The notes below the pieces were generated by a model. It made no database searches. It was given only the letters and a program-made list of their open reading frames with translations, and was not told where the DNA came from. Below are positions 15,167 through 34,574 of a stretch of DNA of 46,021 bases, in pieces. The position numbers and the translations under genes are program-made. Source of the DNA: Algicola sp. (GTDB lineage: Bacteria > Bacteroidota > Bacteroidia > Flavobacteriales > Flavobacteriaceae); contig JAAEZN010000004.1 of assembly GCA_018222835.1 (NCBI GenBank), positions 9,527 to 55,547 of the forward strand. Direction: 5' to 3'. Within the stretch, counting starts at the first letter, position 1; every line of letters starts with the position of its first letter.

Positions 15167-16498
15167 TTAACCTTTGGTCATATCCAATTTGCTCACCACA
15201 AATTTACCAAGGTCCCTACCTTGTTTAATTCCAACATCAATTGCCGCTCTATAATGTATGCCCCCGTACATTCTACTTAAGGCAGCCTCGTTAGCTGCTT
15301 GATTAAAAGAAGTAAATGAGCGTACAGGTAGGCCATAGGCTACTTCGGTATCATCATCAAAAGCAAAATCATCACCAAAAATGTCGGTTAAAGCAACAGC
15401 CGCTGCACCTGATACCACACTGTGCCCACTGGTATATTCGGGAAACGGGGGAGTTTGCAGAACGGGCTCCCAGCTATCGTCTATATACTCGTTTATTACG
15501 GTTTCTGGGCGGATTAAATTACTCCTGTATTTCTCGTCCCAACAACTAATAAAGGCGTCTGCGATCGCAATAGAGGTTTTTGTATAGGCATAAACGGTTT
15601 TGGCAAAGTCGGCATTGGTTTTTCTGGAAGCAATTTTGGATATGCCGATCCAATGCGCCCCAGGTGTAATTTTCTTGGTCGCGAACATTAAGTGTCCCCG
15701 TGTTACCGATACATAAGGGTTGCAGTCCCAAAATTGTGCTATGGCAATTTCTTCGGATTTATCGCCTTTGCCGATCATACTTTTGCGCACTTCGTACACT
15801 TCCATTACCTCTTTGTAAAAATCGGAGTCTTTTTCCATGGAGAATTCTGGAGGGGGCACCGGTTTGAACTGTTGAGCCGAATCTATTGCAAAAGGGCGGA
15901 TTTTTTCCCAATGGGGCTCAATACCATTCATGTATGCTGGAGGTGTGGGCTGCCAGCGCGATGGGTCTTCGGAGTTTACGGAGAACTTTGGCATAGTGCG
16001 CGTTTCCTTATAATTGTCCTTATCCATCCATTTACCAATAAAGTCGGAAACTTGCAGGCCATATTGTTTGGAGGCAGTAAAAACAGGTTCATTTTTTTCT
16101 GACCAAATATTGTAAAGGCTATCTCGGAAGCTTTCTATTCTTTCCTCGGAAAAGATAAGTCTCTTGTTTAAATCCATGTGCGCCACCAAAGCTGCTATCT
16201 CGTAGTTGATGTTCTCATCGCTTTCAGGTTTTGGAATGCTTTGCAAACCGGTTACCTGTCCCGCCAAGGAATTATATGAATCATTTTTTAGGGCAATTAT
16301 TTCATAGGCAGCGATATTCGGGTAGGCAAAAATCCTACTGGCAACAGGAGGAGAAAAAATATCATGAATCATGACCTCGATTACCTTGTCCACAGAAGCA
16401 TGGAACTCTTCGGGAGAAATCTCAATAGGTTCCTGTTTTTTTTGGCATGATGCCAGAACCAATACCAATGCTGTGATTATGCTTATTCTTTTTTTCAT
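15167..16498 (-). CDS. PAP2/vanadium-dependent haloperoxidase-type lipoprotein
   Basis: I use the ATG at 16498, which gives a lipoprotein signal (MKKRISIITALVLVLASCQK, lipobox LASC, Cys18). An ATG at 16516 would add six residues and overlap the upstream gene. The 443-residue protein has the PAP2/haloperoxidase active-site set: KYRSNLIRP (Lys323...Arg330-Pro331), PEYTSGHSVVSG (TSGH, 356-359) and SRMYGGIHYRAAID (Ser408-Arg409, His415, Asp421). In this superfamily those residues bind phosphate or vanadate, so both acid phosphatase and haloperoxidase chemistry are possible; sequence alone does not decide. It is the last gene of the susCD-UnbV run on this strand, ten bases after the previous stop. 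Its surface or periplasmic location follows from lipidation. Confidence 0.88.
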   Translation of the reverse strand: MKKRISIITALVLVLASCQKKQEPIEISPEEFHASVDKVIEVMIHDIFSPPVASRIFAYPNIAAYEIIALKNDSYNSLAGQVTGLQSIPKPESDENINYEIAALVAHMDLNKRLIFSEERIESFRDSLYNIWSEKNEPVFTASKQYGLQVSDFIGKWMDKDNYKETRTMPKFSVNSEDPSRWQPTPPAYMNGIEPHWEKIRPFAIDSAQQFKPVPPPEFSMEKDSDFYKEVMEVYEVRKSMIGKGDKSEEIAIAQFWDCNPYVSVTRGHLMFATKKITPGAHWIGISKIASRKTNADFAKTVYAYTKTSIAIADAFISCWDEKYRSNLIRPETVINEYIDDSWEPVLQTPPFPEYTSGHSVVSGAAAVALTDIFGDDFAFDDDTEVAYGLPVRSFTSFNQAANEAALSRMYGGIHYRAAIDVGIKQGRDLGKFVVSKLDMTKG

Positions 16499-16508
16499 GG
16501 CCTTATGT

Positions 16509-19500
16509 TTAATCATTGATTTTATAGACTTGTAGTTTATCGTTATTGAATACCGCTAACAAATATTTTTGATTGTTGATACTAATAGTTTGAAGGTGTC
16601 GAATGGATTTTTTGGTGAAATCCAAGCCCAACTGATTGCCCAACGTAATTTCGTTTTCACTTTTTAATAGAGCGCCTGGGAAAGAATCCAACCTACCATG
16701 ATAAGGTTTTACACCAAAATAATTTCCGCCGAGCAAAACCTCCGATTTTCCGTCACCATCAAAATCATCTACCAAAAACGACATAATGGGAGAAACTTGG
16801 AGATTGTTGGTAAAGGGTACAAAAACAAAAGTTCCGTTATCATTTCTCAGATATCCCGACTTTAGGGTGTTGACTTCAAGTTGAGTCGAGGCCTCCAGCG
16901 CTTCTTTCCCAAATATTTCTTCCATGGTACGCCCGGCAAACGATTTATAGGAGGTGTATTTCTTTTTAAGGAAAACCATTTGTGATGCCAGCCCATCCAA
17001 AGTTTCCAATGGGTAATATTTGCCGTTCTTTTCCATTGCTGTGACCGTTTCGGTCTGTCCGTTCTCGTCAAAATCATTGAAGAACAGTTTTATAGGATGT
17101 TCTTTGGATGCTTTGAACTTTGAATTTGTGCCCCAATTTCCGAGCAGATAATCCGTGTCGCCATCTGCGTCGATATCAAAAGCTTCGATAGCTTGCCAAA
17201 GTCCGGAAATATTTGGCTGCTCTACCTCGGTGAAAATGCCGTTTTGGTTCTTTAAGAATTTAGGAGACATCCATTCTCCAACAATTATAAGGTCGGTAAT
17301 GTTGTCGCCGTCAAAATCACTCCATATAGCATCGGTAACCATTCCTTTGGAATAAGCTTCAAAAGAAGAGTTCACTGTAAAGACACCATTCTGGTTTTCG
17401 AGCAAATAGGAACTGGCTGGAGCACCAAACTTTGCTGTAATGGTATGTCCTCCTATAAACACATCCAAATCTCCATCATTATCAAAATCAAAAGGTCGTA
17501 CTACGGATGAATTTTGGAACTTTTCCGGTAAGGCCGTTAGGCTAAAAACAGTGTCTTTTTTTAGGTAATATGTATCCAGTAAGGGACTTGCCTTTCCAAA
17601 AAAGTCACCACCCCCTGCACTCAAGATCAAATCATTTTTCCCATCATCGTTAAAGTCTGCAATTGCTGCCGAAATGTTTTCCTGAATGGAATCTTTTTGG
17701 AGGCTTTCAATTTTTTGGTCTATAAATATAGAATCTTGCTGAATATAGATTTTTGAGGATTTGTACTTGGAACCACCTAAGAAAATATCGTTTTTTCCAT
17801 CTCCGTTTAGGTCGCCAATGGCCATTGCCGGACCTCTATCGGAGATTTGGTAGGGAATCAGCTTTTCCCGGTTAAAGTCGGTATAGTTGTCCTCTACATG
17901 GGTATAATCCAACCCCAAATTGTTGGCTACGGGCTCAAAAAGCTGTTTTGAAGTCTTGTGCAACGAATTATAATCGAAAGGTTTGGTGTTCTCTGGTTTG
18001 ATGGTAATGGTTTGGTTGACAGGAACATCTCGTAAAACCTGATAGGTTTTGTTGGGCCAAATAATTTTTAGCGAATCGATTTGCTCTTCATCTTTATACC
18101 CAAAATGAATCATATGCTCTGACGATGCTTGGAAACCGCGGGTAGGGAAAAGTTCTTTGAACTGAAGCCCGCTCTTGGTATGGGAATACACTTTGGTCCC
18201 GATTCCGAATGCATTGTTTTTGGTGTATTGGAACCTTAGTTTGATGTAATTGCCCTTACCGTTCGTTTTATTGATGTAAAGGGATGCGGGTTGGCCAATA
18301 TTGTTCGTTACCAAATCCAAGTCGCCATCACCATCTAGGTCCGCCACAGCAGTTGCACCGGAAATTAAAGTGTCTTTGGTGATCCATTTATCCGACATGT
18401 CTTGATAGGATAGGTCTTTTCCTCCTTGGAACACATAATTATGAACATTGCCGGTCGGCATTAAAGCTAGGGCCTGCTGGTCCACTAGCTTGGTATTGTT
18501 TATTTTGTTCTGAATCTGTTCACTGGAAGCAAACTTGATAAAATCCAGGTCGTTAGGTCTTTTTGGAATACCGTTGGAAACAAATATATCTTGTAGGCCA
18601 TCTAAGTCGTAATCGCCAAAAAGTGCACTCCAACTCCAGTCCGTAGCTGCAATGCCACTCATTAAGGCCGTTTCCATAAAATTGCCATCAGGTTGGTTTA
18701 CGAACAACATATTTCTGGTAAACTGGTAATGATATCCGAAACGTTCTATCCGCATTTTTTGGGTTTGGATATTGTCATCTCCTTCGGAGGACTTTAGGGC
18801 TACTTCGTCCTCTGGCAACATGTCCAAAGAAAGTAAATCCGGCCTTCCATCGTTATTGATGTCAGCAACATCGTTCCCCATAGAAAATCTTGAGGTGTGA
18901 CCAAAGTACTTTTTTAAGCTTTCGGTAAAGGTGCCATCGCCGTTGTTTAGGTAATAGTAGTCGTCTTCATGAAAATCGTTCCCCACATAAATATCAGGGT
19001 ATCCATCTTGGTTAAAGTCCGCTATGGCCAAACCAAGGCCATAACCGTTTACTCCTCCATAAATTCCGGCTTCTTCGCTTACATCGGTAAAAGTTCCATT
19101 GTCGTTTCGTAAAAGTTTGTCGCCTGTTTCGTAACGGCGTTCGTACCGAAGATCAAAACGACCAAAAGAGTTTTGGGTGTGCACGGCATGGTTGAGGAGG
19201 TAGAGGTCCAGGTCGCCGTCCAAATCATAATCGAAAAAAGCTGCATTGGAACTGTAGGAATCGAAGTCCAGTCCGTATTTGGCCGCACTTTCGGTAAATG
19301 TGTTGTCCCCGTTGTTGATGTAGAGTTCGTTAAAGCCATTAAACCCATTTATGCCGACCACGGCACATACATAAATGTCCAGAAGTCCGTCCCCGTTCAC
19401 ATCTGCCATTGTTGTCCCAGTGTTCCAAGAACTGTTGCCCTCTACTCCTGCGGTAGCGGAAATATCCTCGAACTTTAGGTTGCCCTTGTTAAGGTATAGT

Positions 19501-19748
19501 TTGTTTTTGACCTGATTTCCTGTAAAGAAAATATCGGGCAGTCCATCATTGTTAATGTCCCCGACGGAAACCCCTCCTCCGTTATAAAAATAGAGGTAGT
19601 CCAAAATACTCAAATCATCGGTCGGGGTAAGGGTATTGGTAAACCCTACTCCCGTTTCTTGTGGACCGGGATTTTTAAATAGGCTCCCTTCCTTTTTACA
19701 AGAAACCAAAACGGCCAATGTAAATAATATGGATAGGGATCTATTCAT
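16509..19748 (-). CDS. FG-GAP/VCBS repeat lipoprotein with ASPIC/UnbV domain (third of three)
   Basis: The 1,079-residue protein has a lipoprotein signal ending LAVLVSCKKEG. It is built of many FG-GAP/VCBS-type beta-propeller repeats, visible as Asp-rich calcium-loop motifs such as VGDINNDGLPDIFFTGN, ADVNGDGLLDIYVC, FDYDLDGDLDLYLLN and DFNDDGKNDLIL. An ASPIC/UnbV domain lies near residues 510-580 (FPTRGFQASSEHMIHFG then DSLKIIWPN). The C-terminal part contains further propeller repeats and ends with a short beta-rich tail. No enzyme motif is visible; such propellers bind proteins or glycans. Its start overlaps the preceding paralogue by eight bases, so translation is probably coupled. The genes are diverged paralogues rather than recent copies. 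Confidence 0.9.
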   Translation of the reverse strand: MNRSLSILFTLAVLVSCKKEGSLFKNPGPQETGVGFTNTLTPTDDLSILDYLYFYNGGGVSVGDINNDGLPDIFFTGNQVKNKLYLNKGNLKFEDISATAGVEGNSSWNTGTTMADVNGDGLLDIYVCAVVGINGFNGFNELYINNGDNTFTESAAKYGLDFDSYSSNAAFFDYDLDGDLDLYLLNHAVHTQNSFGRFDLRYERRYETGDKLLRNDNGTFTDVSEEAGIYGGVNGYGLGLAIADFNQDGYPDIYVGNDFHEDDYYYLNNGDGTFTESLKKYFGHTSRFSMGNDVADINNDGRPDLLSLDMLPEDEVALKSSEGDDNIQTQKMRIERFGYHYQFTRNMLFVNQPDGNFMETALMSGIAATDWSWSALFGDYDLDGLQDIFVSNGIPKRPNDLDFIKFASSEQIQNKINNTKLVDQQALALMPTGNVHNYVFQGGKDLSYQDMSDKWITKDTLISGATAVADLDGDGDLDLVTNNIGQPASLYINKTNGKGNYIKLRFQYTKNNAFGIGTKVYSHTKSGLQFKELFPTRGFQASSEHMIHFGYKDEEQIDSLKIIWPNKTYQVLRDVPVNQTITIKPENTKPFDYNSLHKTSKQLFEPVANNLGLDYTHVEDNYTDFNREKLIPYQISDRGPAMAIGDLNGDGKNDIFLGGSKYKSSKIYIQQDSIFIDQKIESLQKDSIQENISAAIADFNDDGKNDLILSAGGGDFFGKASPLLDTYYLKKDTVFSLTALPEKFQNSSVVRPFDFDNDGDLDVFIGGHTITAKFGAPASSYLLENQNGVFTVNSSFEAYSKGMVTDAIWSDFDGDNITDLIIVGEWMSPKFLKNQNGIFTEVEQPNISGLWQAIEAFDIDADGDTDYLLGNWGTNSKFKASKEHPIKLFFNDFDENGQTETVTAMEKNGKYYPLETLDGLASQMVFLKKKYTSYKSFAGRTMEEIFGKEALEASTQLEVNTLKSGYLRNDNGTFVFVPFTNNLQVSPIMSFLVDDFDGDGKSEVLLGGNYFGVKPYHGRLDSFPGALLKSENEITLGNQLGLDFTKKSIRHLQTISINNQKYLLAVFNNDKLQVYKIND

Positions 19749-22700
19749 TTAGAGCGAAAATCTTTGGTTTATTGTTATTAATGGCGACAATCATAAAAAT
19801 TTTGCCGTTTTTATCCTTGAACTGCTTAAGGTATTTCACTTCTTCCTTTATTTTAAAACCGCTGGCCTCATAATCTTGCCAATCAAAATTTAGATTGCCA
19901 TCACCCAATAACAGATTTCCTTGGCTGGCATCCAATCGAGAAAATTGAGGCTTAAATTCATAGTTGTTACCTGCCATAATCAAATCTAAATTACCATCAT
20001 TGTTGACATCGGCACACATAATGTCACAAACGCAGGATAGTTGTACTCTTGGCGGCAAGTTTTTTATGGTGAATTTACCACCTCCTTCGTTTATAGCAAT
20101 TACCGAAGCAGAGGTTTCTACCTTTTTTACGATGGATTTATCCATAATTTCTTTGGGAAAAAGTTGATGAATGGTGCGATGTGCATAATCCGATGCTTTG
20201 AGATTTTGCTTCTTGAGTGAGGGCAATTGATCTGTAAGCTCTCTTTTTTGATGAATCGGATAGTCTCCGCCATTCTCTTGTATCGTCATAATCTGCTCGA
20301 TCGTGCCGTTGTTGTCATAATCGTTTATGTACAATTTCATGGGAGCATATTCGGTTGGCTTGTAATGCAGGTTAAGGCCCTGATTGCCCAAAATAAGGTC
20401 TTGATCTCCATCGCCATCTAGGTCGGCCGTTTCCACGGTATTCCACCACCCGTACAAACTGTCCAAAGAGGTGGTCATTTTGGTCAGTCTTCGGCCTGTG
20501 TTTTTATAGATTTTTGGTGTGTCCCATTCAGAGGTGACGATAAGGTCGTTTTTACCATCACCATCGATGTCCTCCCATTTGGAATCGGTCACCATTCCAG
20601 CATCTTTAAGGTCGTACGCCAAGCGTTCTGTAACATTGTTAAAGGTACCGTCTCCCATATTTTCGAGAAGCAGGTGGTCGGGAGAAATACCATAAACGCC
20701 AACAACGCTTCTTGATCCAATAAAAAGATCGATATCACCGTCGTTGTCATAATCGTAGGCGGAAATCGTGGAAATATTTTTAAATGTAGAGGGCAGTTCA
20801 TGTTCGGACCTTGAGAAGCTTCCGTTCCCATCATTTAAATATAGTCGTGCTTTATAGGTGCGTTCCATGTTTACCACATTCCCTCCGGAGCCTACCACTA
20901 GGTCAAGGTCTCCATCACCATCGGCATCAAAAAATGATGCAGCAACATCCTCAAATTCCTTGTCTTCTTCAAAAGCGGCTATTTTCTTGGAGGAGAGCTT
21001 TCCATCTCCTCTATGGATGTACAAAGTACCAGGCTGCCCTTTAGCTCCTCCGATATAAAAATCCTCGTTCCCATCGCCGTTAACATCGGCAACGGCCAAT
21101 GAAGGCCCTTCTTGTGAAATTTTGTGAGAGATAAGCCCTTCGTAGTCAAAATCGTTGTAATTATCTTCTTTGTGGGCTGAGACCACATCGGTATTTAATT
21201 CCTTCAGGAAGGATTTTATGGATTCTTTTTTGGGTAGGCTATAGATTTCTTTTGCATTGGCATGATCAATGGTGAAAACTTGATTTGCTTTTGTGTTTTC
21301 AAATTTTTGGGTCTGGTTGTCCGGCCAAATAACCCGAATGGAATCCAAGGCTTTGGTTTTGCCTAGGCCAAATGTCATATCGTACTGTACAGAGGACTGA
21401 AAACCTCTGGATGGTATCAATTCCTGATTTATAATATTTCCGTCAAAGTAGATTTTGGCCAAAGCGCCAATTCCAAATGGATTCGTTTTTGGCCCCTTAA
21501 ACTTTAGTTGGATATAGTTATGATCCAATTGGGAGTCGGTGTTGTTTTTATAGATAAAGGCCGGAGTGTTTACATTATTGATTACCAAATCCAAATCCCC
21601 ATCGTTGTCCAAATCTGCATAGGCGGCCCCATTGGAGCGGGAGGGAAGGTCAAAACCCCAATCTTTGCTTGCATTTTTAAAGGTGATGTCGCCATTGTTT
21701 CGGTATGCGTAATTGGGCTGTGGTTTTACAGGCATTCTGCTGATAATGGAATCTATGGATTCTTTTTTGCCAGTAAGTGCCATTTTTTGAACGATCTCGT
21801 TGGCAAAAAAGTCAACAAAGTCCAAATCCGTAAGATCGTGGTTAATGCCATTGGTTATAAATATGTCTTTTAGGCCATCGTTGTCCATATCGAACATCAA
21901 CCCTGCCCAGCTCCAGTCGGTTGCGTCGATCCCACTGTAGTAGGCAATTTCTGAGAAAGTGCCATTTCCGTTGTTGAGCTGTAAGGTGTTTTGAATGTAT
22001 TGTTGCCCAAAATCCTTACTTTTTTTAAGGTCAAAAATATTGTAGCCTTCAAATTCCATTACGGACTTTACACGAGATTCTTCTTCCGGTAGCATGTCCG
22101 TTATAAAAATATCGTTAAGGCCATCGTTATTGATGTCGGCCACATCAATACCCATGGCGGAAAGACTTAGATGTGACGTCCAGTCTTTGATTTCTTCTGA
22201 AAATGTACCGTCTTTTTGATTGATGTAGAGGTAATCTCTTTCATAGAAATCGTTGGATACATAAATATCCGGATATAGGTCACCGTTAAAATCTGTGACC
22301 ATTACACCAAGTCCAAAACCGATCAAGCTGCCATAAATGCCAGCTTCTTCACTAACATCTACAAATTTGCCATTATCGTTTCTTAGCAACATATCCCCAA
22401 CCCCTTTAAAGATGTCCGGAACACCTTCCCAATCTTGGGCCCTGACCTCACGCTGCTCGGCATAACCTAAACTGCTTACGGGGATATTGCTATTGTTCAA
22501 AATATATACATCTAAGTCGCCATCCTTGTCGTAGTCAAAAAAAGAAGCATGTGTGGTAAATCCGGTTTTAGCGAGATTGTATTCTTCCGCTTTTTCGGTA
22601 AATGTTAAATCCCCATTATTAATGTATAGATCGTTATCATGGTTGTTGCCTTCCATGTTCCCTGCATTACAGACATAAATATCCAACAACCCATCATTGT

Positions 22701-23088
22701 TTACATCGACCATAACCACGCCGGTGGACCACGGTTTATTGCCCAAAACTCCAGCTTTTTCCGAGATATCCTCAAACTGCATGTTGCCCTTGTTTAGATA
22801 TAACCTATTGGGCTCCATATTACCGGTAAGATAAATGTCCTGCAGGCCGTCGTTGTTGATATCGCCAATAGCCACACCACCACCATTATAAAAATTCCGG
22901 TACTTGAAAATATTAAAGTTTTTCTGGTTCTCTACTTTGTTGATAAACGTGATGCCCGTTTCCTCGGGTTCCAAAAGAGTAAATAGGGTTTGTGTGTTAT
23001 TTTCCTCTTTGGGCTCGATGCCTTCTTTGTTGTTACAGGAAACCAGGCCTATTAAAAGGAGAATTGTGGTTGTATATTTTAATTTCAT
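19741..23088 (-). CDS. FG-GAP/VCBS repeat lipoprotein with ASPIC/UnbV domain (second of three)
   Basis: The 1,115-residue paralogue of its two flanking genes has a lipoprotein signal (TTILLLIGLVSCNNKEG). It shows the same order: an N-terminal propeller beginning FYNGGGVAIGDINNDGLQD, repeated D-x-D/N-x-D-G-x-x-D loops (for example FDYDKDGDLDVYILN), an ASPIC/UnbV domain at about residues 535-605 (IPSRGFQSSVQYDMTFG, DSIRVIWPDN), then a second propeller set (DVNGDGNEDFYIGG, DIDGDGKNDLIVTS). It joins the upstream paralogue through an ATGA overlap (stop and start share 23085-23088) and the downstream one through eight bases. Likely anchored in the outer membrane; binding target unknown. Confidence 0.9.
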   Translation of the reverse strand: MKLKYTTTILLLIGLVSCNNKEGIEPKEENNTQTLFTLLEPEETGITFINKVENQKNFNIFKYRNFYNGGGVAIGDINNDGLQDIYLTGNMEPNRLYLNKGNMQFEDISEKAGVLGNKPWSTGVVMVDVNNDGLLDIYVCNAGNMEGNNHDNDLYINNGDLTFTEKAEEYNLAKTGFTTHASFFDYDKDGDLDVYILNNSNIPVSSLGYAEQREVRAQDWEGVPDIFKGVGDMLLRNDNGKFVDVSEEAGIYGSLIGFGLGVMVTDFNGDLYPDIYVSNDFYERDYLYINQKDGTFSEEIKDWTSHLSLSAMGIDVADINNDGLNDIFITDMLPEEESRVKSVMEFEGYNIFDLKKSKDFGQQYIQNTLQLNNGNGTFSEIAYYSGIDATDWSWAGLMFDMDNDGLKDIFITNGINHDLTDLDFVDFFANEIVQKMALTGKKESIDSIISRMPVKPQPNYAYRNNGDITFKNASKDWGFDLPSRSNGAAYADLDNDGDLDLVINNVNTPAFIYKNNTDSQLDHNYIQLKFKGPKTNPFGIGALAKIYFDGNIINQELIPSRGFQSSVQYDMTFGLGKTKALDSIRVIWPDNQTQKFENTKANQVFTIDHANAKEIYSLPKKESIKSFLKELNTDVVSAHKEDNYNDFDYEGLISHKISQEGPSLAVADVNGDGNEDFYIGGAKGQPGTLYIHRGDGKLSSKKIAAFEEDKEFEDVAASFFDADGDGDLDLVVGSGGNVVNMERTYKARLYLNDGNGSFSRSEHELPSTFKNISTISAYDYDNDGDIDLFIGSRSVVGVYGISPDHLLLENMGDGTFNNVTERLAYDLKDAGMVTDSKWEDIDGDGKNDLIVTSEWDTPKIYKNTGRRLTKMTTSLDSLYGWWNTVETADLDGDGDQDLILGNQGLNLHYKPTEYAPMKLYINDYDNNGTIEQIMTIQENGGDYPIHQKRELTDQLPSLKKQNLKASDYAHRTIHQLFPKEIMDKSIVKKVETSASVIAINEGGGKFTIKNLPPRVQLSCVCDIMCADVNNDGNLDLIMAGNNYEFKPQFSRLDASQGNLLLGDGNLNFDWQDYEASGFKIKEEVKYLKQFKDKNGKIFMIVAINNNKPKIFALNE

Positions 23089-26399: not shown

Positions 26400-26502
26400 G
26401 GGGGTAAATTAAATAATTCGTTGGCAAGTAGGGGCATGTAATAGATTAATCTTTTTCTAAAGAAGAATTAATAATTGATTAATACGATTCAAGTTAAAAA
26501 GA

Positions 26503-26526
26503 AAAGACCACCGATCGGTGGTCTTT
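26503..26526 (-). terminator. Strong intrinsic terminator after susD
   Basis: A perfect 24-base palindrome (arms of 12 bases, AAAGACCACCGA and its complement) lies 32 bases beyond the susD stop. Read on the minus strand, the stem is followed by CTTTTT, as expected of a rho-independent terminator. It separates susCD from the three UnbV genes and could set a lower expression level for them. Because the stem is flanked by A-rich sequence on the other side, it is best suited to minus-strand transcripts. Confidence 0.82.
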
Positions 26527-26557
26527 CCATCTATAAAACAGCTTAAACTTTGGATTG

Positions 26558-28192
26558 TTAGTAGCCTGGATTCTGAACCAAATTTGGGTTAAGAATAAGT
26601 TGGGCAGCTGGTATTGGGAATAATTGACGGTCTGGATTGCCTATAGCATCTCCTTCTTTAAACTCCCAATCTTTAGTGTACTGTCCAAAACGGATCAAAT
26701 CGTTTCTTCTCCAACCTTCAGTGTACAGTTCTCTTGCTCTTTCGTCCAAGACGTCTTGCTCGGTTACTGAGCCCAGTGGTGCAGCACTTCTGAGTGTTCT
26801 TAAGTTATTGATCATTGATGTTGGGTCACCACCACTTCTTAACATAGCTTCTGCTTTCATCAAATAAGCATCTGAGTATCTAAAGAAAATAATATGGTTG
26901 GCGAAAGCACCATCCCTTGGGTTGTACTTAATCACACGGATACCGGTTACCTCATTGTTGTCCACGAGACTCGGTTGACCGTTGGCAGCACTAAAGAATT
27001 CTCTTGTAAACTCTAGAGGATTACCGCCCCTGTCTTCCAATGCAGCTCCGTTCGGGGCATATTGTTGACCAATCAAGAATCCGTAACCAACATTGGAACC
27101 ATCTACGATTCCATCGTCGTTGTCGTCCGTACCGAAGCTTCCATCATAGGCTACTCCGCCTTCTGTTGGAACAAAACCTCTACGCTCTTCTTGACCGTCT
27201 AGCAAGGTGCCGTTGTTGTTACCTGTATTGCTGTTGGCATCTCCTTCGAATAAGTCATAAAATTCGGCCAAAGTACTGAAGCCGTTCCAGCCACCACCAC
27301 CTAATTCGGTAGAGTTGTAGTGAAGTGTATGGAATATTCTGGCACCTGCTGATGCCTGTGCATACCATATCGTTTCGGTATCGCTTCCTGGAACGAAAAT
27401 ATCAAAGTAATCATCGGCAAGTTCGTATCCATCATTTTCAATTGCATCAACTAAGGAAATTACCTCGTTCATGTCCGCGGATTCCGCTGTTCCAGACCCG
27501 TTGTATATATGTTTGTTCAAGAGTACTTTGGCTTTTAAGAATCTTGCGGCAGCCTTTGTGGCCCTTGCGTTGTCGTCTCCCGCGGCCGAAGTGGGTAGAT
27601 TGGCAATTGCAGTATCCAGATCACTTAGGATAAAGGCAACCGCATCTCCACCTGTCAATACATCGGGATTTGCCAACGGATCGGCAGCTTCCGTGTCTCT
27701 ATACGGTACTTGTCCAAAGTTATCCAAGATAACGAACATAGATAAGCCTCTAATAAATGCAGCATGCCCATTGGCTTCTGTAGAGGAAGCGGATCTAGAA
27801 TCCAATACTTCGCTAGCCTGTAATTGTAGGCCGTTCCATTCGTTCCAAACACCTAGGATATATTGGTGCTCCGGAGTCCATGAATGTTGGTGCAATTGTC
27901 TCCATATTCCATTATCTCCCCAGTCAGAGCCTCTAGTGGGCACTAAAAGGGCGTCTGTGGTTACTTCGTTCAATGCGTATAAGTTTGCCTGTGTGCCAAA
28001 ATAACCATACAAATCATTATACATTGCGGTAACTTGACTGGCAGAAGCCTCGGCAGTTGCTATTCCGGTAAAACCCTCATCCAGTAGAGAATCGGTGGGT
28101 TCTACTTCGAGGTCGGTACAGGCAGTTAGCATAACACTTACTAGCAAGGGAAATGCCAAATATCTGTTTGTTTGTTTTAAAATATTTTTCAT
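26558..28192 (-). CDS. SusD/RagB-family outer-membrane substrate-binding lipoprotein
   Basis: The 544-residue protein has a lipoprotein signal with lipobox LTAC, followed by TDLEVEPTDSLLDEGF, the usual SusD opening. SusD hallmarks include the early FIRGLSMFVILDNFGQVPY segment, the TPR-like ATKAAARFLKAKVLLNKHIY, and the C-terminal ARELYTEGWRRNDLIRFG with FPIPAAQLILNPNLVQNPGY (family end motif). SusD proteins form the ligand-binding lid over a SusC pore on the cell surface. The susC gene is 11 bases upstream on the same strand, so the two form a standard pair. The substrate is not evident from the sequence; the nearby GH13 lipoprotein hints at an alpha-glucan or similar glucoside. Confidence 0.95.
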   Translation of the reverse strand: MKNILKQTNRYLAFPLLVSVMLTACTDLEVEPTDSLLDEGFTGIATAEASASQVTAMYNDLYGYFGTQANLYALNEVTTDALLVPTRGSDWGDNGIWRQLHQHSWTPEHQYILGVWNEWNGLQLQASEVLDSRSASSTEANGHAAFIRGLSMFVILDNFGQVPYRDTEAADPLANPDVLTGGDAVAFILSDLDTAIANLPTSAAGDDNARATKAAARFLKAKVLLNKHIYNGSGTAESADMNEVISLVDAIENDGYELADDYFDIFVPGSDTETIWYAQASAGARIFHTLHYNSTELGGGGWNGFSTLAEFYDLFEGDANSNTGNNNGTLLDGQEERRGFVPTEGGVAYDGSFGTDDNDDGIVDGSNVGYGFLIGQQYAPNGAALEDRGGNPLEFTREFFSAANGQPSLVDNNEVTGIRVIKYNPRDGAFANHIIFFRYSDAYLMKAEAMLRSGGDPTSMINNLRTLRSAAPLGSVTEQDVLDERARELYTEGWRRNDLIRFGQYTKDWEFKEGDAIGNPDRQLFPIPAAQLILNPNLVQNPGY

Positions 28193-28203: not shown

Positions 28204-31200
28204 TTAAAATTTAGCGTTGATCCCCAAGGTTACGGTTCTTGGTCTTGGGAAAGCAGTGTAATCTATACTTGCACTGGGTATGCCAGTACCAAAGTCTCCT
28301 GTAGAAGATGATACTTCTGGATCTAATCCGCTATAGTCGGTAATCAAGAATAAGTTTTGCCCGGTAAGCGACAACCTTAAATTCTTAAGAGCGCCCTCAC
28401 CACTTAGTGGAACGTTGTAACCTATGCTTGCGTTCTGTAATCTAACAAAATCACCTTTTTCCAAATATAGCGTGGAAACCTCTTGGCTAACATTGGTATC
28501 CAAAGCTCTTTGGGTAGCATTTCTTGTAGTTTCGAAAGTTGGTCGGTTCAAGAATGCGTTGGCTGTATTGTTGTAAACAGAGAACCCGAATTGACCTGCA
28601 AAATAAGCTGAAGCATCCCAGTTTTTAACTCTTAGGTTAAGGGATAGACCGGCATTTACATCAGGAAGACCATCTTCTCCCACAAAATCCTTTTGATCAG
28701 GGTTGAAGTTTGGATTTCCACTACTATCTTCGGAATATTCAGCCATATAGTAAGAGAATAAAGATCTACCTTCTCCCAAACGTTGAGCAAAGGCATCAGT
28801 TAGTCCAGGTCCGTTGAGGGAACCAAAGTTTGCAACAACTCCATTTAACCCTTCTACCGTATTCTTGTTGTAAGCAATGTTGAAGGAAGATGAGAATGTT
28901 ACATCTTGAGTTTGGACGAAATCATAGTTCAAAGCAACTTCAATACCTTGATTGATTACTGTTCCATCTTCTAGGTTTTTAAAAACGAATGGATCGGCAG
29001 CTGGAGCAGCGGCACCTTGTCTAAACAATAAATCTTTTGTTTCTTTTCGGTATAAATCAACAGACCCACTGAATCTATCCATATTTATTCCAAAGTCCAC
29101 ACCTATGTTCAAATCCAAAGTGGATTCCCACTTTAAGTCTGGATTTTGTACAGCTACGGTCTGAGCACCTGGTCTAAGAATGTCGCCGCTGTCGGTAATG
29201 CCTGGCTGACCAAAACGGACCCTTCTTAAATAGTTGGCATATCCAAGACCTTCTTGGTTACCGGTGATACCTGCGCCCAATCTCAATTTTAAAGTAGAGA
29301 AGGCGTCTCCAATAAAGTCTTCTTCGTTCAATTTCCAAGCAACGGCACCAGATGGGAAGTAACCGTATTTGTTGTTTTCACCGAATCGTGAAGAACCATC
29401 TGCTCTTACTGTGGCGGTAAACAGGAACTTGTCCATAAGGCTGTAGTTCGCTCTTGCAAAGAAAGATTGTAGTTCATCGGTATTGTCAAAAGTATCTACC
29501 CAAACAGAAGTGTATGAACCAGAAGTGAAGTCCAATGTTGCGGTATCTTCAAAAGGATTGATACTATTTATAAAGGAACCATTAGGGGCATAACCTGCTT
29601 GCTGATAAGGCCCTTCGATACTGTTTCGGATGTTGTTTACATCTTCGATCAACAGTTCGCCCATTGCATCCAATTGAGCAGTTGGCGATTGCCAACCTTG
29701 GGAGTTGAATCCTCTTCTACGAAAATCTTGGAAAGAGTATCCTACGATTACGTCCAATGAAGAATTATCGAAATCCTTTTTATAGTTAAGGGTTGCTTCT
29801 AAAAGTTTACTTGTAGCATTTAAGTTGTTATATGCAGTTTGCCCATTTCCAGTAACCCGGTTAAAGTTATTCGCCTTTCCAGAAATAGAGGTAATGGCAT
29901 CTGCATCTGAATCATCGTAACCTACGCTCACTTTACCAGTTAATTCAGGAGTAATATCGTACTCAGCTGAAAAATTAACCAATGCTCTGTCGGTATGCGT
30001 TACTGACTGGAAATTGGCAAGGTAATTTGCAGGATTCAATTGGTTTCCTTCCAAAAAGAAACTTGGATTTGCCGGCCAAGTTGGGTTGGCGGAATAGGCA
30101 GCACCAATCAAGTTGCCACTTGCACCAGAACCGCCACTAACTGGTGGTGCATCATCGTTTACACGCGAGATGGATGCTTGTAGTGTAAGTCTCAATTTAT
30201 CATCAAGAAAACGATGGCTTGCATTAATTCTTCCAGTAATACGTTCTTGAGCTGATTTTTCGATTACACCAAACTGTTTTCCATAAGAGAATGTACCTCT
30301 TATATTACCACTCCCATAATTTTTGGAATATGAAAGGTTTTGGTTCTGGGAAGCAACCGTTCTTGTGATGTAATCTTGCCAATTGGTGTTATATCCAAAA
30401 TCATTTGCATCTGCAATAGCTTGGCTTCTAAGCGAAGCAGTTGTAGATAGGAACTCATTACTGTCAAAAAGATCATAGTCGTTCGCTGGAGTTGAGATAC
30501 TTAAGTTTGAATTAAATTCCCAAACACCACCTTGACCGGATTTACCGCTTTTTGTTGTAATAATTACAACCCCGTTGGCACCTCGGGAACCATAAATGGC
30601 AGTTGCAGAGGCGTCTTTCAAGATAGACATACTTTCTATGTCGTTAGGGTTGATAAAGTTTAGCGGGTTTCTTGTGGCATTACTACCATTGATTACATCA
30701 CCACCAGATGGTGTTGTAGATTCACCTGATAATGGCACACCGTCCACAACAAAAAGTGGATTGTTGTTGGAGCGGATAGAGTTGGAACCCCTAATTCTAA
30801 GGTTCATTCCAGCACCTGGCTCACCACTCGCTTGAGTAATCTGTACACCTGCTGTTTTACCTTGTATCAATTGTTCGGGTGATGCAATAACACCACCATT
30901 AAAATCCTCGGAGGTTACTGCAGCTACAGAACCGGTCGCATCTTTAATAGTAGTTTGTCCATAACCAATAATCACTACCTCGTCCAAAGCTTGTGCATCC
31001 TCTTCCAAGGTTATATTAACGGTAGATTGTCCATTAACCGCTACTTCTGCGGTTTTGTAACCAATATAGCTGAAAACCAAAGTTGCGGTATCCTCTACAT
31101 TGTTTAGGGTGAAATTGCCGTCAAAATCGGTCTGCGTACCATTGGTAGTACCTTTTACCAATACGCTCGCCCCTGGCAACGGCCCGTTCGCATCCGAAAC

Positions 31201-31287
31201 GGTACCTGATACTGTCTGAGCCTTTACCATCCCAACGCATAAAAATGCACCAAGCAGTAAAAAGCTTTTTAGTAGCGTAATCCTCAT
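28204..31287 (-). CDS. SusC/RagA-family TonB-dependent outer-membrane transporter
   Basis: In this 1,027-residue protein residues 1-23 are a Sec signal. Residues ~25-98 are the carboxypeptidase-D-regulatory-like domain (SGTVSDANGPLPGASVLVKG, DGNFTLNNV, FSYIGYKT). The TonB-box-like LDEVVIIGYG is at 101-110. The plug domain contains NNNPLFVVDGVP and the SusC signature DASATAIYGSRGANGV (225-240). The remainder is the 22-strand barrel, ending RPRTVTLGINAKF. There is no N-terminal STN domain, so signalling through an anti-sigma factor is not expected; the divergent LacI-type gene is the likely regulator. The protein imports oligomers with its SusD partner using TonB energy. Confidence 0.96.
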   Translation of the reverse strand: MRITLLKSFLLLGAFLCVGMVKAQTVSGTVSDANGPLPGASVLVKGTTNGTQTDFDGNFTLNNVEDTATLVFSYIGYKTAEVAVNGQSTVNITLEEDAQALDEVVIIGYGQTTIKDATGSVAAVTSEDFNGGVIASPEQLIQGKTAGVQITQASGEPGAGMNLRIRGSNSIRSNNNPLFVVDGVPLSGESTTPSGGDVINGSNATRNPLNFINPNDIESMSILKDASATAIYGSRGANGVVIITTKSGKSGQGGVWEFNSNLSISTPANDYDLFDSNEFLSTTASLRSQAIADANDFGYNTNWQDYITRTVASQNQNLSYSKNYGSGNIRGTFSYGKQFGVIEKSAQERITGRINASHRFLDDKLRLTLQASISRVNDDAPPVSGGSGASGNLIGAAYSANPTWPANPSFFLEGNQLNPANYLANFQSVTHTDRALVNFSAEYDITPELTGKVSVGYDDSDADAITSISGKANNFNRVTGNGQTAYNNLNATSKLLEATLNYKKDFDNSSLDVIVGYSFQDFRRRGFNSQGWQSPTAQLDAMGELLIEDVNNIRNSIEGPYQQAGYAPNGSFINSINPFEDTATLDFTSGSYTSVWVDTFDNTDELQSFFARANYSLMDKFLFTATVRADGSSRFGENNKYGYFPSGAVAWKLNEEDFIGDAFSTLKLRLGAGITGNQEGLGYANYLRRVRFGQPGITDSGDILRPGAQTVAVQNPDLKWESTLDLNIGVDFGINMDRFSGSVDLYRKETKDLLFRQGAAAPAADPFVFKNLEDGTVINQGIEVALNYDFVQTQDVTFSSSFNIAYNKNTVEGLNGVVANFGSLNGPGLTDAFAQRLGEGRSLFSYYMAEYSEDSSGNPNFNPDQKDFVGEDGLPDVNAGLSLNLRVKNWDASAYFAGQFGFSVYNNTANAFLNRPTFETTRNATQRALDTNVSQEVSTLYLEKGDFVRLQNASIGYNVPLSGEGALKNLRLSLTGQNLFLITDYSGLDPEVSSSTGDFGTGIPSASIDYTAFPRPRTVTLGINAKF

Positions 31288-31380: not shown

Positions 31381-31394
31381 CGAAAACGGTTTCG
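31381..31394. promoter_or_regulatory. Candidate LacI-family operator
   Basis: CGAAAACGGTTTCG is a 14-base near-palindrome centred on CpG with six of seven base pairs symmetrical, the classic form of LacI/GalR-family operators. It sits 94 bases upstream of the susC ATG and 260 bases upstream of the divergent LacI-type gene, an expected place for local control. Binding is inferred from motif form and position only. Confidence 0.6.
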
Positions 31395-31550: not shown

Positions 31551-31572
31551 TTGCACAGCCTGTTGGGTGCAA
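31551..31572. repeat. Inverted repeat TTGCAC-N10-GTGCAA
   Basis: Two six-base arms (31551-31556 and 31567-31572) are separated by ten bases, followed on the plus strand by eight A residues. It lies 82 bases upstream of the LacI-type start. It could be a second regulator site (half-sites about 1.5 turns apart centre to centre) or a weak hairpin. Role unknown. Confidence 0.4.
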
Positions 31573-31653
31573 AAAAAAATGTTTCTAATGCGGTCTGGCG
31601 TCTTAATTAAGTAATTTTAGGGCTCCAGAAATTGCCACCTAAATTAAATATAG

Positions 31654-32673
31654 TTGAAGTCAAAGATTACCTTAAAAGATATAGCCAGGGAACTTGAGGT
31701 TTCCATATCAACCGTTTCAAAAGCACTTAAGAACAGCGAAGAGATCAGTAGGGATACCAAAGAGAAAGTACAGGCCTTTGCCAAGCTCTATAATTATAAG
31801 CCCAACAATATTGCCATAAGTTTAAAGAATAAGCGCACCAAGAATATTGGTGTGGTAATTCCGGATATTGTACATCATTTTTTTACAACCGTGATCAGGG
31901 GGATTGAAAAGTATGCCAATGCAAGGGGGTACAATGTCATTGTTTGTCTTTCTGAAGAATCTTTCGATAAGGAAGTTATCAACATGGAGATGTTGGCCAA
32001 TGGAAGTATAGATGGATTTATTATGTCCCTATCTTCCGAAACGCAGGCAAAAGGCGATTACAATCATTTAAAGGAAGTCACCGATCAGGGAATACCTGTG
32101 GTTCTTTTTGATAGGATAACCAATGAAGTCGAGTGCGACAAGGTTATAATAGATGATGAGCTTGGGGCCTATCGCGCAACCCAAAAGTTTATAGATCAAG
32201 GAAAAAGCAAAATAGCCCTGATTACTACCGATGATTATCTTAGTGTGAGCAAGGCAAGGACCAAAGGTTATCGAAAAGCATTGCAAGAAAGTAACCTTGG
32301 CGTTGACGAATCACTGATCCTAAAACTGCCATCCATGGAAATGGACGAGGGGGCCATTAAAACATTTTTAAACGAAAAGAATCCTGATGCAGTTTTGTGC
32401 GTGAACGAAATCTTCGCGGTCTATAGTATGCGGTTGGTCCAAGAAAAAGGGCTAAAAATACCAGAGGACATCTCTTTTATTGGATTTACCGATGGCGTTT
32501 TGTCAAAATATGCCAATCCGAGCCTTTCCGTGGTAGCGCAGCATGGCGAAAAAATGGGAGAGGTTTCGGCGGAAATGCTTATCGATAAAGTAGAAAGCGA
32601 GGCCGAGGAAGAAAGTTATCAAACCAAAGTATTGGAGCCCACCCTGGTCATTAGAGATTCCATTGCACATTAA
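31654..32673 (+). CDS. LacI/GalR-family transcriptional regulator, TTG start
   Basis: The 339-residue protein starts KSKITLKDIARELEVSISTV, the standard LacI helix-turn-helix, then SKALKNSEEISRDTKEKVQAFA and the hinge region. The periplasmic-binding-protein-like effector domain begins near NIGVVIPDIVHHFFTTVIRG and ends with the IPEDISFIGFTDG and VVAQHGEKMG motifs. The start must be TTG at 31654: an in-frame TAG directly precedes it and the next in-frame ATG is more than 100 codons later. The gene is divergent from susC and 29 bases upstream of the GH13 gene, suggesting it controls both directions in response to a sugar. A TTG start may keep repressor levels low. Confidence 0.93.
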   Translation: MKSKITLKDIARELEVSISTVSKALKNSEEISRDTKEKVQAFAKLYNYKPNNIAISLKNKRTKNIGVVIPDIVHHFFTTVIRGIEKYANARGYNVIVCLSEESFDKEVINMEMLANGSIDGFIMSLSSETQAKGDYNHLKEVTDQGIPVVLFDRITNEVECDKVIIDDELGAYRATQKFIDQGKSKIALITTDDYLSVSKARTKGYRKALQESNLGVDESLILKLPSMEMDEGAIKTFLNEKNPDAVLCVNEIFAVYSMRLVQEKGLKIPEDISFIGFTDGVLSKYANPSLSVVAQHGEKMGEVSAEMLIDKVESEAEEESYQTKVLEPTLVIRDSIAH

Positions 32674-32691
32674 TGTAACCAAGTAACTTTC
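32663..32691 (+). promoter_or_regulatory. Candidate promoter for the GH13 gene
   Basis: TTG (32663-32665) and TAACTTTC (32684-32691) are 18 bases apart, close to the Bacteroidota TTG/TAnnTTTG arrangement. The -7 box differs from consensus in the last base. It overlaps the end of the LacI-type gene and would give a very short leader before the ATG at 32703. The gene may equally be co-transcribed with its upstream neighbour. Confidence 0.3.
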
Positions 32692-32702
32692 TTATCTTCT
32701 TT

Positions 32703-34574
32703 ATGAGAACAATTACAGGTCTAATTATAGCCTTGGTCATTGTAGCATTTAATTCCTGCATAGAAAAAACCGAACAAAAGCCTGCCCCGCAACCTATGAA
32801 AAAGAAAGAAGTAGTCTATCAGGTATTCACCCGTCTTTTTGGAAACACTAATACGACCAACAAGCCTTGGGGAACCATAGAAGAGAACGGAGTGGGCAAG
32901 TTTGCCGACATCTCCGAAAAAGCTTTGACCGAAATAAAAAAGTTGGGAGTTACACATATATGGTACACAGGAGTGCCCCATCATGCGGTGATCAATGATT
33001 ACACGGACTATGGTATATCCAACGATGATCCTGATGTAGTTAAAGGTAGGGCCGGTTCGCCATACGCAGTTAAGGATTATTACAACGTTGACCCGGATTT
33101 GGCCATTGACCCATCAAAAAGATTAGAGGAGTTCAAAGAGTTGATCGAGCGAACCCACAAAATAGGTATGAAGGTCGTAATTGATATTGTCCCCAATCAC
33201 GTGGCAAGGAATTATGAAGGAAAGACCAATCCAGATGGAGTGGAGGATTTTGGGAGTTCCGACGATACTTCAAAAGAGTATGATGTAAACAACAATTTTT
33301 ACTACATACCAGGTGAATCTTTTAAAGTACCGGAATGGCAGGAAGGCTACAAACCACTTGGTGGCGAAGAAAACAGTTTGATAGATTCCAAATTTGAAGA
33401 AAATCCGGCCAAATGGACAGGTAACGGCTCAAGATTGGCGCAGCCACATTACAATGATTGGTACGAAACGGTAAAGATTAACTATGGGGTGCGTCCAGAT
33501 GGCACTAAGGACTTTGAAGAATTGCCAGAAACATATAGAGAAAAGGATTATAAAGAACATTACGAGTTTTGGAAAAACAAAACATTACCGGATTCTTGGA
33601 TCAAGTTTAAAGATATTACCCAGTATTGGTTGGACTTGGGGATTGACGGGTTCAGGTTTGATATGGCCGAAATGGTTCCTGTAGAATTTTGGAGCTATCT
33701 CAACTCCAACATCAAAATAAAAAACCCAGACGCCTTTCTGTTGGCTGAAGTTTACAATCCCAGCCTGTACCGCGATTATATCCAGCAAGGCAAAATGGAC
33801 TATTTGTACGATAAGGTCGAACTATACGATAGCATAAAACATATAATGAAGGGTTACGGGTGGACAGATCATATCCCCGTTGTTCAAAAGGGCATGGCAG
33901 ATATAGAACACCATATGCTCCACTTTTTGGAAAACCATGATGAACAACGTATTGCCAGTCCGGATTTTGCGGGCAATGCCCAATTGGGAAAACCTGCCAT
34001 GGTGGTATCGGCAACGATCAGTACTTCTCCCACTATGATTTATTTTGGGCAAGAAGTTGGCGAGCCCGGGCTAGAAGATGCTGGGTTTGGTGACCCTACG
34101 AGGACTTCAATTTTTGATTATATAGGTGTGTCGCATCATCAAAGATGGGTCAATAACAAAAAGTTTGATGGAGGTAAACTATCCGATGAAGAGAAAAATC
34201 TTAGGGATTTCTACAAACGCCTTTTAAACTTCACCATATCAAGCGAAGCGTTGATGGGGGACTATCAAGAAATTCATTTTTACAACAAAGAGCATACCGA
34301 GGGGTACGACCATAGAGTATTGTCTTTTGTGAGATGGACAGCGAACGAAAAATTAATTGTGCTCTCCAATTTTGATGCACAAAAAAATTACTCGTTCAAC
34401 GTTAAAGTGCCAGAAGATGTTATTGCAAAATGGGAATTGAAGGATGGGGAATATCCATTGTCTGATGCTTTGTACGGTATGGTTGGTCCAGATCTGACCG
34501 TAGCCAATGGGAGAGGGTTGATCCAAGTGGATTTGGCACCCCTACAATCATACATTTTTAAACTGGACAAATAG
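32703..34574 (+). CDS. GH13 alpha-amylase-family lipoprotein
   Basis: The 623-residue protein has a lipoprotein signal (lipobox FNSC). It carries the GH13 conserved regions: DIVPNHVA (161-168), GFRFDMAEM with nucleophile Asp320, FLLAEVYN with acid/base Glu349, and FLENHDEQR with the transition-state Asp413. The order and spacing are those of a TIM-barrel alpha-amylase-type enzyme, followed by a C-terminal beta-sandwich of ~90 residues (KLIVLSNFDAQKNYSFNVKV...). Lipidation and the neighbouring susCD make it a SusG-like surface or periplasmic hydrolase of alpha-glucosidic bonds. Exact specificity (amylase, glucosidase, sucrose-type) cannot be told from this sequence. It follows the LacI-type gene by 29 bases. 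Confidence 0.92.
   Translation: MRTITGLIIALVIVAFNSCIEKTEQKPAPQPMKKKEVVYQVFTRLFGNTNTTNKPWGTIEENGVGKFADISEKALTEIKKLGVTHIWYTGVPHHAVINDYTDYGISNDDPDVVKGRAGSPYAVKDYYNVDPDLAIDPSKRLEEFKELIERTHKIGMKVVIDIVPNHVARNYEGKTNPDGVEDFGSSDDTSKEYDVNNNFYYIPGESFKVPEWQEGYKPLGGEENSLIDSKFEENPAKWTGNGSRLAQPHYNDWYETVKINYGVRPDGTKDFEELPETYREKDYKEHYEFWKNKTLPDSWIKFKDITQYWLDLGIDGFRFDMAEMVPVEFWSYLNSNIKIKNPDAFLLAEVYNPSLYRDYIQQGKMDYLYDKVELYDSIKHIMKGYGWTDHIPVVQKGMADIEHHMLHFLENHDEQRIASPDFAGNAQLGKPAMVVSATISTSPTMIYFGQEVGEPGLEDAGFGDPTRTSIFDYIGVSHHQRWVNNKKFDGGKLSDEEKNLRDFYKRLLNFTISSEALMGDYQEIHFYNKEHTEGYDHRVLSFVRWTANEKLIVLSNFDAQKNYSFNVKVPEDVIAKWELKDGEYPLSDALYGMVGPDLTVANGRGLIQVDLAPLQSYIFKLDK

What the first reader, a model, noticed from the sequence alone, without database searches (positions are those of the whole stretch)
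15167..34574. LacI-linked susCD locus carrying three tandem UnbV propeller lipoproteins and a PAP2/haloperoxidase
Seen: susC and susD, three ~1,100-residue FG-GAP/ASPIC-UnbV lipoproteins joined by 4-8 base overlaps, then a PAP2/haloperoxidase-type lipoprotein, with LacI and GH13 genes divergent. Known: typical glycan loci pair susCD with SusE/F-like lipoproteins and several glycoside hydrolases. Here the accessory slots are taken by very large calcium-loop propellers and a phosphate/vanadate enzyme, and only one GH is present. Inference: this is a distinct surface uptake or processing system, in which the UnbV proteins may bind the substrate or partners and the PAP2 enzyme may dephosphorylate or halogenate it. 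The substrate is unknown.
Basis: partly seen in the sequence, partly recalled or inferred. Interest (0 to 1): 0.72.

Follow-up and report, generated by a model that had tools for sequence, protein, structure and literature searches.

The report
Sugar-uptake locus with iodine-oxidising enzyme
A marine bacterium carries, next to an outer-membrane sugar importer, three giant calcium-loop lipoproteins and an enzyme that very probably oxidises iodide, and this combination recurs in many related bacteria, which gives an enzyme of unsettled role a likely set of partners.

Summary
The 'PAP2/haloperoxidase' is a vanadium iodoperoxidase (VIPO): 73% identical over 444 residues to the solved Zobellia enzyme 4cit, with its active-site residues kept in 184-188 of 188 homologues. 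UnbV lies immediately upstream of VIPO in 50 of 61 same-family and 22 of 43 class-level stretches. A Gemmatimonadota plasmid has LacI-SusC-SusD-UnbV-VIPO-UnbV. The three UnbV genes are old, position-fixed classes. UnbV is also a wider SusCD partner: 11 of 13 UnbV loci picked away from VIPO sit behind susCD. A LacI-type operator lies between lacI and susC in 22 of 22 testable loci, and a hairpin terminator between susD and unbV in 49 of 60, so susCD and unbV-VIPO look like two coupled modules. Linked catabolic genes, where seen, are alpha-glucoside/sucrose/trehalose or xylose type. Best reading: sugar-regulated SusCD uptake coupled to iodide/H2O2 oxidation at the cell surface. Enzyme family and recurrence are strong; the role is inferred. 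Ten searches of the held library showed no paper reporting the link; the key 2014 VIPO paper was not held.

The parts
13395..14252 (-). NHL/SGL-type lipoprotein, end of the unbV-VIPO gene run
   Evidence: NHL over cut-off, SGL below it; lipobox; 8-base overlap with the next gene
14245..15144 (-). GyrI-like domain protein with an N-terminal hydrophobic stretch
   Evidence: PF06445 over cut-off; directly behind VIPO in 93 junctions of the compared loci
15167..16516 (-). Vanadium iodoperoxidase (VIPO), lipoprotein
   Evidence: 73.0% identical over 444 residues to 4cit; active-site residues conserved; lipobox
16509..19748 (-). UnbV3, double-propeller FG-GAP/ASPIC-UnbV lipoprotein
   Evidence: PF07593 72.7 bits; model pLDDT 87.9; CRTAC1 match; 12 Dx[DN]xDG motifs
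19741..23088 (-). UnbV2, same architecture
   Evidence: PF07593 70.1 bits; 12 motifs; own position-fixed class
23085..26399 (-). UnbV1, same architecture; start may be the ATG at 26381
   Evidence: PF07593 73.2 bits; 11 motifs; own position-fixed class
26501..26528 (-). Hairpin terminator between susD and unbV1
   Evidence: 12 pairs, T-run; a like hairpin in 49 of 60 loci, 0.1 of 60 in shuffles
26558..28192 (-). SusD
   Evidence: PF07980 and PF14322 over cut-off; nearest solved relative Bacteroides SusD 3ck7
28204..31287 (-). SusC
   Evidence: TIGR04056 667 bits, cut-off 368
31381..31394 (.). LacI-type operator CGAAAACGGTTTCG between lacI and susC
   Evidence: a like site in 22 of 22 testable loci
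31654..32673 (+). LacI-family regulator, divergent from susC
   Evidence: PF00356 and Peripla_BP over cut-off
32703..34574 (+). GH13 alpha-amylase-family lipoprotein
   Evidence: PF00128 over cut-off
34688..35440 (+). GDPD-family protein behind GH13; link to the system uncertain
   Evidence: PF03009 over cut-off; also beside GH13 near VIPO in L132

Best explanation
The locus joins two modules. Module 1 is a LacI-controlled SusC/SusD importer for a small sugar or oligosaccharide, here perhaps an alpha-glucoside (GH13 beside it). Module 2 is unbV1-unbV2-unbV3-VIPO-gyrI-SGL: three double-propeller, calcium-loop lipoproteins that work with a vanadium iodoperoxidase. Proposed working: the sugar relieves LacI and raises susCD; read-through past the hairpin after susD, or a separate promoter, gives lower amounts of UnbV and VIPO; UnbV proteins sit in the slot of surface glycan-binding proteins and hold VIPO near the transporter; VIPO uses H2O2, from the alga or from sugar oxidation, to oxidise iodide to HOI, which removes peroxide and fixes iodine at the cell surface while the cell feeds. 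Shown: gene content, enzyme family, active site, recurrence, operator-like site, terminator-like hairpin. Inferred: LacI binding, surface location, scaffold role, read-through, iodide as the natural substrate, peroxide or iodine role.
For: VIPO: 4cit match and conserved active site. UnbV next to VIPO in most loci, same strand, often overlapping, order flipped but adjacency kept in a few (L192, L214, L215, L218). All 61 VIPO genomes of the family have UnbV. UnbV behind SusCD in 11 of 13 loci without VIPO. Operator-like site in 22 of 22 lacI-susC gaps. Hairpin in 49 of 60 susD-unbV gaps. Sugar-catabolic neighbours. Arenibacter sp. C-21 takes up iodine only with glucose, O2 and Ca2+, and has at least five VIPO homologues (PMC5064120, whole text); two other Arenibacter species have SusD, a reversed SSS gene, then UnbV-UnbV-VIPO (L114, L127).
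Against: No expression, binding or activity data. SusCD is not obligatory (Zobellia uliginosa; SusC and SusD both seen in only 41 of 61 and 14 of 43 stretches). UnbV absent from 6 of 61, 7 of 80 and 13 of 43 stretches (some end with the contig). In L038, L043, L106, L110, L118 xylose genes lie between UnbV and VIPO. Over all 44 loci UnbV tracks SusC (r 0.91) better than VIPO (0.80). The hairpin argues against one simple operon, and no operator-like site was found in the susD-unbV gap in 60 loci. Carriers on land or in fresh water (Gemmatirosa, Hymenobacter, several Flavobacterium species) make iodide as the only natural substrate doubtful. Most stretches show no catabolic gene of the sought types: neither kind in 32 of 61, 54 of 80, 36 of 43.
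Confidence: 0.45

Rival explanations
1. UnbV proteins are simply the large glycan-binding partners of this SusCD class, and VIPO is a neighbour with an independent stress role, kept nearby by shared chromosomal position.
For: UnbV occurs with SusCD without VIPO in 11 of 13 picked loci; many VIPO loci share the same downstream chromosomal neighbour (metallophosphoesterase-barrel gene); over 44 loci UnbV tracks SusC more closely than VIPO.
Against: Adjacency persists in other families of the class and in another phylum, at unlike chromosomal places and sometimes with flipped order; all 61 VIPO genomes have UnbV; junctions overlap in 57 of 142.
Confidence: 0.2
2. VIPO makes hypoiodous acid or other oxidants as a weapon or signal-quencher against competitors on algae; SusCD only makes its expression depend on food.
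For: Enzyme family; many hosts are marine and algae-linked by name. Antimicrobial and signal-quenching roles of haloperoxidases are recalled, not from a call.
Against: Does not explain the UnbV partnership or the carriers on land.
Confidence: 0.17
3. The PAP2 protein is a phosphatase that removes phosphate from a glycerophosphoryl or phospho-sugar substrate taken up by SusCD; GDPD, GlpF and GlpK nearby would use the products.
For: PAP2 superfamily domain; GDPD, MIP-family channel and FGGY-family kinase genes in the window.
Against: 73% identity to a solved iodoperoxidase; the four solved sequences matched at E<=0.1 are all haloperoxidases; the window's GDPD family was seen in 1 of 80 named and 0 of 61 family stretches (in many loci the matching place lies outside the stretch).
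Confidence: 0.07

Closest known systems
Zg-VIPO1, vanadium iodoperoxidase of Zobellia galactanivorans (PDB 4cit, 4usz)
   Same: Full-length match, 73% identity, same active-site residues. The Z. uliginosa homologue, 98.4% identical to 4cit, lies behind three UnbV genes and before gyrI and SGL, as in the window
   Different: In Z. uliginosa no susCD lies directly upstream; the partners have not been described in any paper that I saw
SusCD/RagAB uptake systems and polysaccharide utilization loci
   Same: SusC and SusD over curated cut-offs, LacI-type regulator, one GH13
   Different: No SusE/F-type gene or GH series; accessory slots hold three 1,100-residue UnbV proteins and a haloperoxidase
CRTAC1 / ASPIC-UnbV proteins
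   Different: A second propeller (598-1079) follows; lipoprotein; found as three distinct paralogues
Glucose-, oxygen- and calcium-dependent iodine uptake of Arenibacter sp. C-21 (PMC5064120, whole text)
   Same: Flavobacterial host; at least five VIPO homologues; a role of haloperoxidase was proposed there
   Different: The genes are not proven, gene neighbourhood is not described there, and I did not examine the C-21 genome

Membership tests
Vanadium-dependent iodoperoxidase (Zg-VIPO1 group) | Full-length homology to a characterised member | tested here: met
   4cit: 778.9 bits, residues 4-447; 73.0% over 444
Vanadium-dependent iodoperoxidase (Zg-VIPO1 group) | Vanadate-site residues (identity of the site recalled from the VHPO motif) | tested here: met
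   K329, R336, H365, R415 in 188 of 188; S363 185, G364 184, H421 187
Vanadium-dependent iodoperoxidase (Zg-VIPO1 group) | Iodide-specific, vanadate- and H2O2-dependent activity | not testable with these tools
   Needs an enzyme assay
SusCD (RagAB) uptake pair | SusC/RagA-type TonB-dependent barrel next to a SusD-type lipoprotein | tested here: met
   TIGR04056 667 bits over 368; PF07980 73 bits over 23.1; adjacent
SusCD (RagAB) uptake pair | Glycan binding and import | not testable with these tools
   -
Classical polysaccharide utilization locus | SusE/F-like binding protein and several glycan-active enzymes beside susCD | tested here: not met
   Pfam found one GH (GH13) and no SusE/F-type domain in the ten proteins scanned at the locus
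ASPIC/UnbV (CRTAC1) proteins | UnbV_ASPIC domain with FG-GAP repeats | tested here: met
   PF07593 70-73 bits over 23.4 and FG-GAP_3 in all three
ASPIC/UnbV (CRTAC1) proteins | CRTAC1 fold | tested here: met
PAP2 phosphatases | Phosphatase activity | not testable with these tools
   The domain is shared by both enzyme kinds; nearest solved relatives are haloperoxidases

The most novel reading that the evidence does not exclude
Probability: 0.2. Interest if true: 0.82.

Novelty: new variant of a known kind. Interest (0 to 1): 0.6.

Why it matters
The vanadium iodoperoxidases of flavobacteria have a structure and an activity but, as far as I could read, no settled role. Their most frequent partner here is a very large protein class of unknown function that is itself a common partner of SusCD. 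That gives named genes for deletions, a predicted inducer class, and a molecular candidate for the sugar- and calcium-dependent iodine uptake reported for a marine flavobacterium. It also points to a SusC-SusD-UnbV type of uptake system for which the NCBIfam scan had no model: the three UnbV proteins matched none at E<=0.001.

Tried and rejected
Recent tandem duplication of UnbV: rejected; in 50 loci with three UnbV genes the best hit of each copy in another locus is always the copy at the same position.

UnbV-VIPO fusion in Gemmatirosa (1461- and 1580-residue ORFs): rejected; VIPO matched only residues 1027-1453 of the first and UnbV residues 472-1564 of the second, the rest being what I take for G+C-rich frame artefacts.

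A wider LacI regulon in the own genome: besides the window's site, two exact sites were found; one lies in a gap beside, one at the 5' end of, genes with no sugar-uptake look by eye. With one mismatch the true pattern (6 and 7 hits) was below the reversed control (9 and 11). So the regulator looks local.

An operator in the susD-unbV gap: none at 11 or more of 13 in 60 gaps.

A fixed xylose link: xylose genes in only 10 of 61, 6 of 80 and 1 of 43 stretches.

A specific GH13 link: the window's GH13 type was seen in 1 of 80 named and 0 of 61 family stretches, but most stretches end before that place, so this says little.

Literature: ten paper searches. Several listings were capped (20 of 285, 20 of 46, 20 of 56). 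The strict one (three of 'VCBS repeat', SusD, haloperoxidase, Bacteroidota) found 0 papers; UnbV with Flavobacteriia 0; one search found 2, neither holding SusD. PMC5064120 was read whole. PMC9296495, PMC8490876, PMC11871015, PMC8072126 and PMC10643221 were seen as passages. PMC5613140 holds none of six terms sought. Fournier 2014 and Amachi 2007 are not held; Barbeyron 2016 was not looked up.

The C-half of UnbV was searched as part of the whole model, not alone; no absence of folds is claimed. No viral-contig scan, phage or E. coli search, and no search of the large protein database was made.
Full report
What is there. The window lies in one contig of a 3.5 Mb genome; the closest named loci by VIPO are mostly Muricauda strains (87-89%). 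The reported genes are all present at the reported places. On the minus strand run susC, susD, then, after 158 bases, three UnbV genes, VIPO, a GyrI-domain protein and an NHL/SGL-type lipoprotein. lacI, GH13 and GDPD run the other way. UnbV1, 2 and 3 carry 11, 12 and 12 Dx[DN]xDG calcium-type motifs. The own genome has two further UnbV genes on other contigs; one is divergent from a SusC-type ORF, the other stands at a contig edge.

The enzyme. In the solved-structure search at E<=0.1 the PAP2 protein matches four sequences, all haloperoxidases, the first being 4cit/4usz at 778.9 bits. Identity to the aligned 4cit residues is 73.0% over 444. The residues that I recall as the vanadate site are conserved in 188 aligned homologues (some of the same genome): K329, R336, H365 and R415 in all, S363 in 185, G364 in 184, H421 in 187. 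The Zobellia uliginosa homologue, 98.4% identical to 4cit over 442 residues, has three UnbV genes directly upstream and gyrI and SGL downstream, as in the window (L044 and L108 are the same genome). So the studied enzyme itself very probably belongs to such a run; Z. galactanivorans was not among my loci.

Recurrence. In 149 same-family genomes, one for each genus, 61 match the window VIPO at E<=1e-20 and 114 have UnbV. All 61 VIPO genomes have UnbV, against 53 of 88 others. I read the neighbourhoods of 61 strong family matches, of 80 named loci (the best 80 of 582, so biased to close kin and overlapping the family set), and of 43 of the 92 class-level matches, which come from 53 of 295 genomes. 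UnbV lies immediately upstream on the same strand in 50 of 61, 68 of 80 and 22 of 43, and immediately downstream in a further 2, 0 and 3. These counts include a few short or weak pieces (L088, L198, L200). UnbV over 150 bits is somewhere in the stretch in 55, 73 and 30, so it is missing in 6, 7 and 13, some of which end with the contig. SusC and SusD are both in the stretch in 41 of 61, 14 of 80 (10 kb flanks often end before them) and 14 of 43 (distant SusCD can be missed by my models). On plasmids, Hymenobacter volaticus has TonB receptor-SusD-VCBS protein-one annotated gene-VIPO in two ORFs; Gemmatirosa kalamazoonensis, of another phylum, has LacI-SusC-SusD-UnbV-VIPO-UnbV-SusC-SusD; Adhaeribacter swui has VIPO with no UnbV annotated or found in 31 kb.

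Controls. Of seven weaker PAP2 relatives (28-36% identity), two lie between UnbV genes behind SusD and five have no UnbV in the stretch. Of 13 UnbV genes picked away from VIPO, 11 lie behind SusC and a SusD-place gene, one of these with one more gene between; in L237 the SusD-place gene was not matched by my model. So UnbV is a common partner of SusCD, and VIPO joins a part of these systems.

Two modules. Between susD and the first UnbV gene a hairpin with a T-run was found in 49 of 60 loci under a strict rule, against a mean of 0.1 of 60 in 20 dinucleotide shuffles and 13 of 60 on the opposite strand (a few loci are from the same genome). The hairpin sequences differ between most loci. This gap has a median of 112 bases and no overlap in 60, while UnbV-UnbV junctions overlap in 124 of 182 and UnbV-VIPO in 57 of 142 (starts are mechanical, which favours overlaps). 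In several genera xylulokinase-, xylose isomerase- and symporter-type genes stand in this gap; in L038, L043, L106, L110 and L118 they stand between UnbV and VIPO instead. In 25 main-type loci protein distances correlate best inside modules: SusC-SusD r 0.88 and PAP2-UnbV3 r 0.64, against 0.26-0.37 across. In all 44 loci every pair correlates at 0.76-0.97, and there UnbV-SusC (0.91) exceeds PAP2-UnbV (0.80), which is against two cleanly separate modules. The species tree was not removed. In 13 loci with three UnbV genes and susCD the picture is mixed: UnbV2-PAP2 0.76, UnbV1-PAP2 0.51, UnbV3-PAP2 0.51, SusC-PAP2 0.55.

Three UnbV classes. In 50 loci with three UnbV genes, the best hit of each copy in another locus is always the copy at the same position. 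The triplet is old and its members are distinct. A second arrangement, UnbV-x190-UnbV-UnbV-VIPO, recurs too; the x190 lipoprotein of L062 matched no Pfam or NCBIfam model at the limits used.

Regulation and sugar. A near-palindrome CGAAAACGGTTTCG lies at 31381-31394 between lacI and susC. In 22 of 22 loci with lacI divergent from susC, the window included, the region holds a site matching 12 or 13 of 13 defined bases, with 0 of 100 simple shuffles reaching it in each. Neighbouring genes in other loci include trehalase, GH97, GH65, GH32, a GH100-like protein and sugar-permease-type genes, or xylose isomerase over its curated cut-off with a xylulokinase-type gene below its cut-off. At least one gene of the alpha-glucoside or sucrose set is in 19 of 61, 20 of 80 and 7 of 43 stretches, a xylose gene in 10, 6 and 1, both in 0, 0 and 1, and neither in 32, 54 and 36 (flanks are short). 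For the window an alpha-glucoside is a guess from GH13 and from a SusD nearest, among solved ones, to the starch SusD.

Location. Lipobox-like starts were found in 147 of 190 VIPO, 265 of 341 UnbV, 56 of 67 SusD and 39 of 58 SGL ORFs (starts are mechanical). Acidic residues after the cysteine, a surface-export mark in this phylum by recall, are usual in SusD (two or more in 46 of 56), less so in VIPO (46 of 147) and UnbV (80 of 265), and nearly absent in SGL (0 of 39). Surface exposure of VIPO and UnbV is suggested at most.

Mechanism. From these facts I prefer a sugar-regulated SusCD uptake system whose UnbV partners bring an iodoperoxidase to the cell surface, where it would remove peroxide and fix iodine during feeding. 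The closest physiology is Arenibacter sp. C-21, whose iodine uptake needs glucose, oxygen and calcium and whose genome has at least five VIPO homologues (PMC5064120, whole text). Two other Arenibacter species here carry SusD, a reversed symporter gene, then UnbV-UnbV-VIPO (L114, L127). In Z. galactanivorans one VIPO gene, vIPO3, was up on Ascophyllum compared with alginate or maltose (PMC9296495, passages); which locus holds vIPO3 was not checked. Against a purely iodide role stand carriers on land and in fresh water. Expression, binding and activity remain untested.

Novelty. Each part is known; the conserved joining of SusCD, UnbV and VIPO was not seen in ten searches of the held library (limits under Tried and rejected). 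The two papers most likely to mention it were not read: Fournier 2014 is not held and Barbeyron 2016 was not looked up. I file it as a new variant of a known kind.

Noticed in passing
window 8440-9630 (-): HD domain joined to a PycTM (Pycsar effector) membrane domain (PF18967 E 7.8e-38; PADLOC PycTM 65 bits). It lies beside the metallophosphoesterase-barrel gene in 35 of the compared loci, which looks like a core gene and not a defence island.
   Followed up: partly
window 9640-13398 (+): 1252-residue protein with a metallophosphoesterase domain and a weak C-terminal outer-membrane barrel match (ShlB, below cut-off); a frequent downstream neighbour of the VIPO run (48 loci).
   Followed up: partly
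window 6051-8438 (+): 795-residue ORF with no Pfam or PADLOC match, found with the two genes above in 34 loci.
   Followed up: no
L062:10386-10958 (-): About 190-residue lipoprotein between UnbV genes in the second locus type, with no Pfam or NCBIfam match.
   Followed up: no
window 34688-38960: GDPD gene, a flavoprotein-type ORF, then an MIP-family channel and an FGGY-family (glycerol-kinase-like) gene near GH13; a possible glycerol link of the alpha-glucoside side.
   Followed up: no
L049, L111, L113 upstream of UnbV1: A symporter-type gene, a sulfite-oxidase-type molybdenum protein (PF00174, on L113) and a protein of about 155 residues stand where susCD would be, before UnbV1-UnbV3-VIPO.
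   Followed up: no
L093 (family stretch): VIPO behind ORFs that by eye look like the cytochrome/DUF1553 and DUF1501 proteins of Planctomycetes.
   Followed up: no
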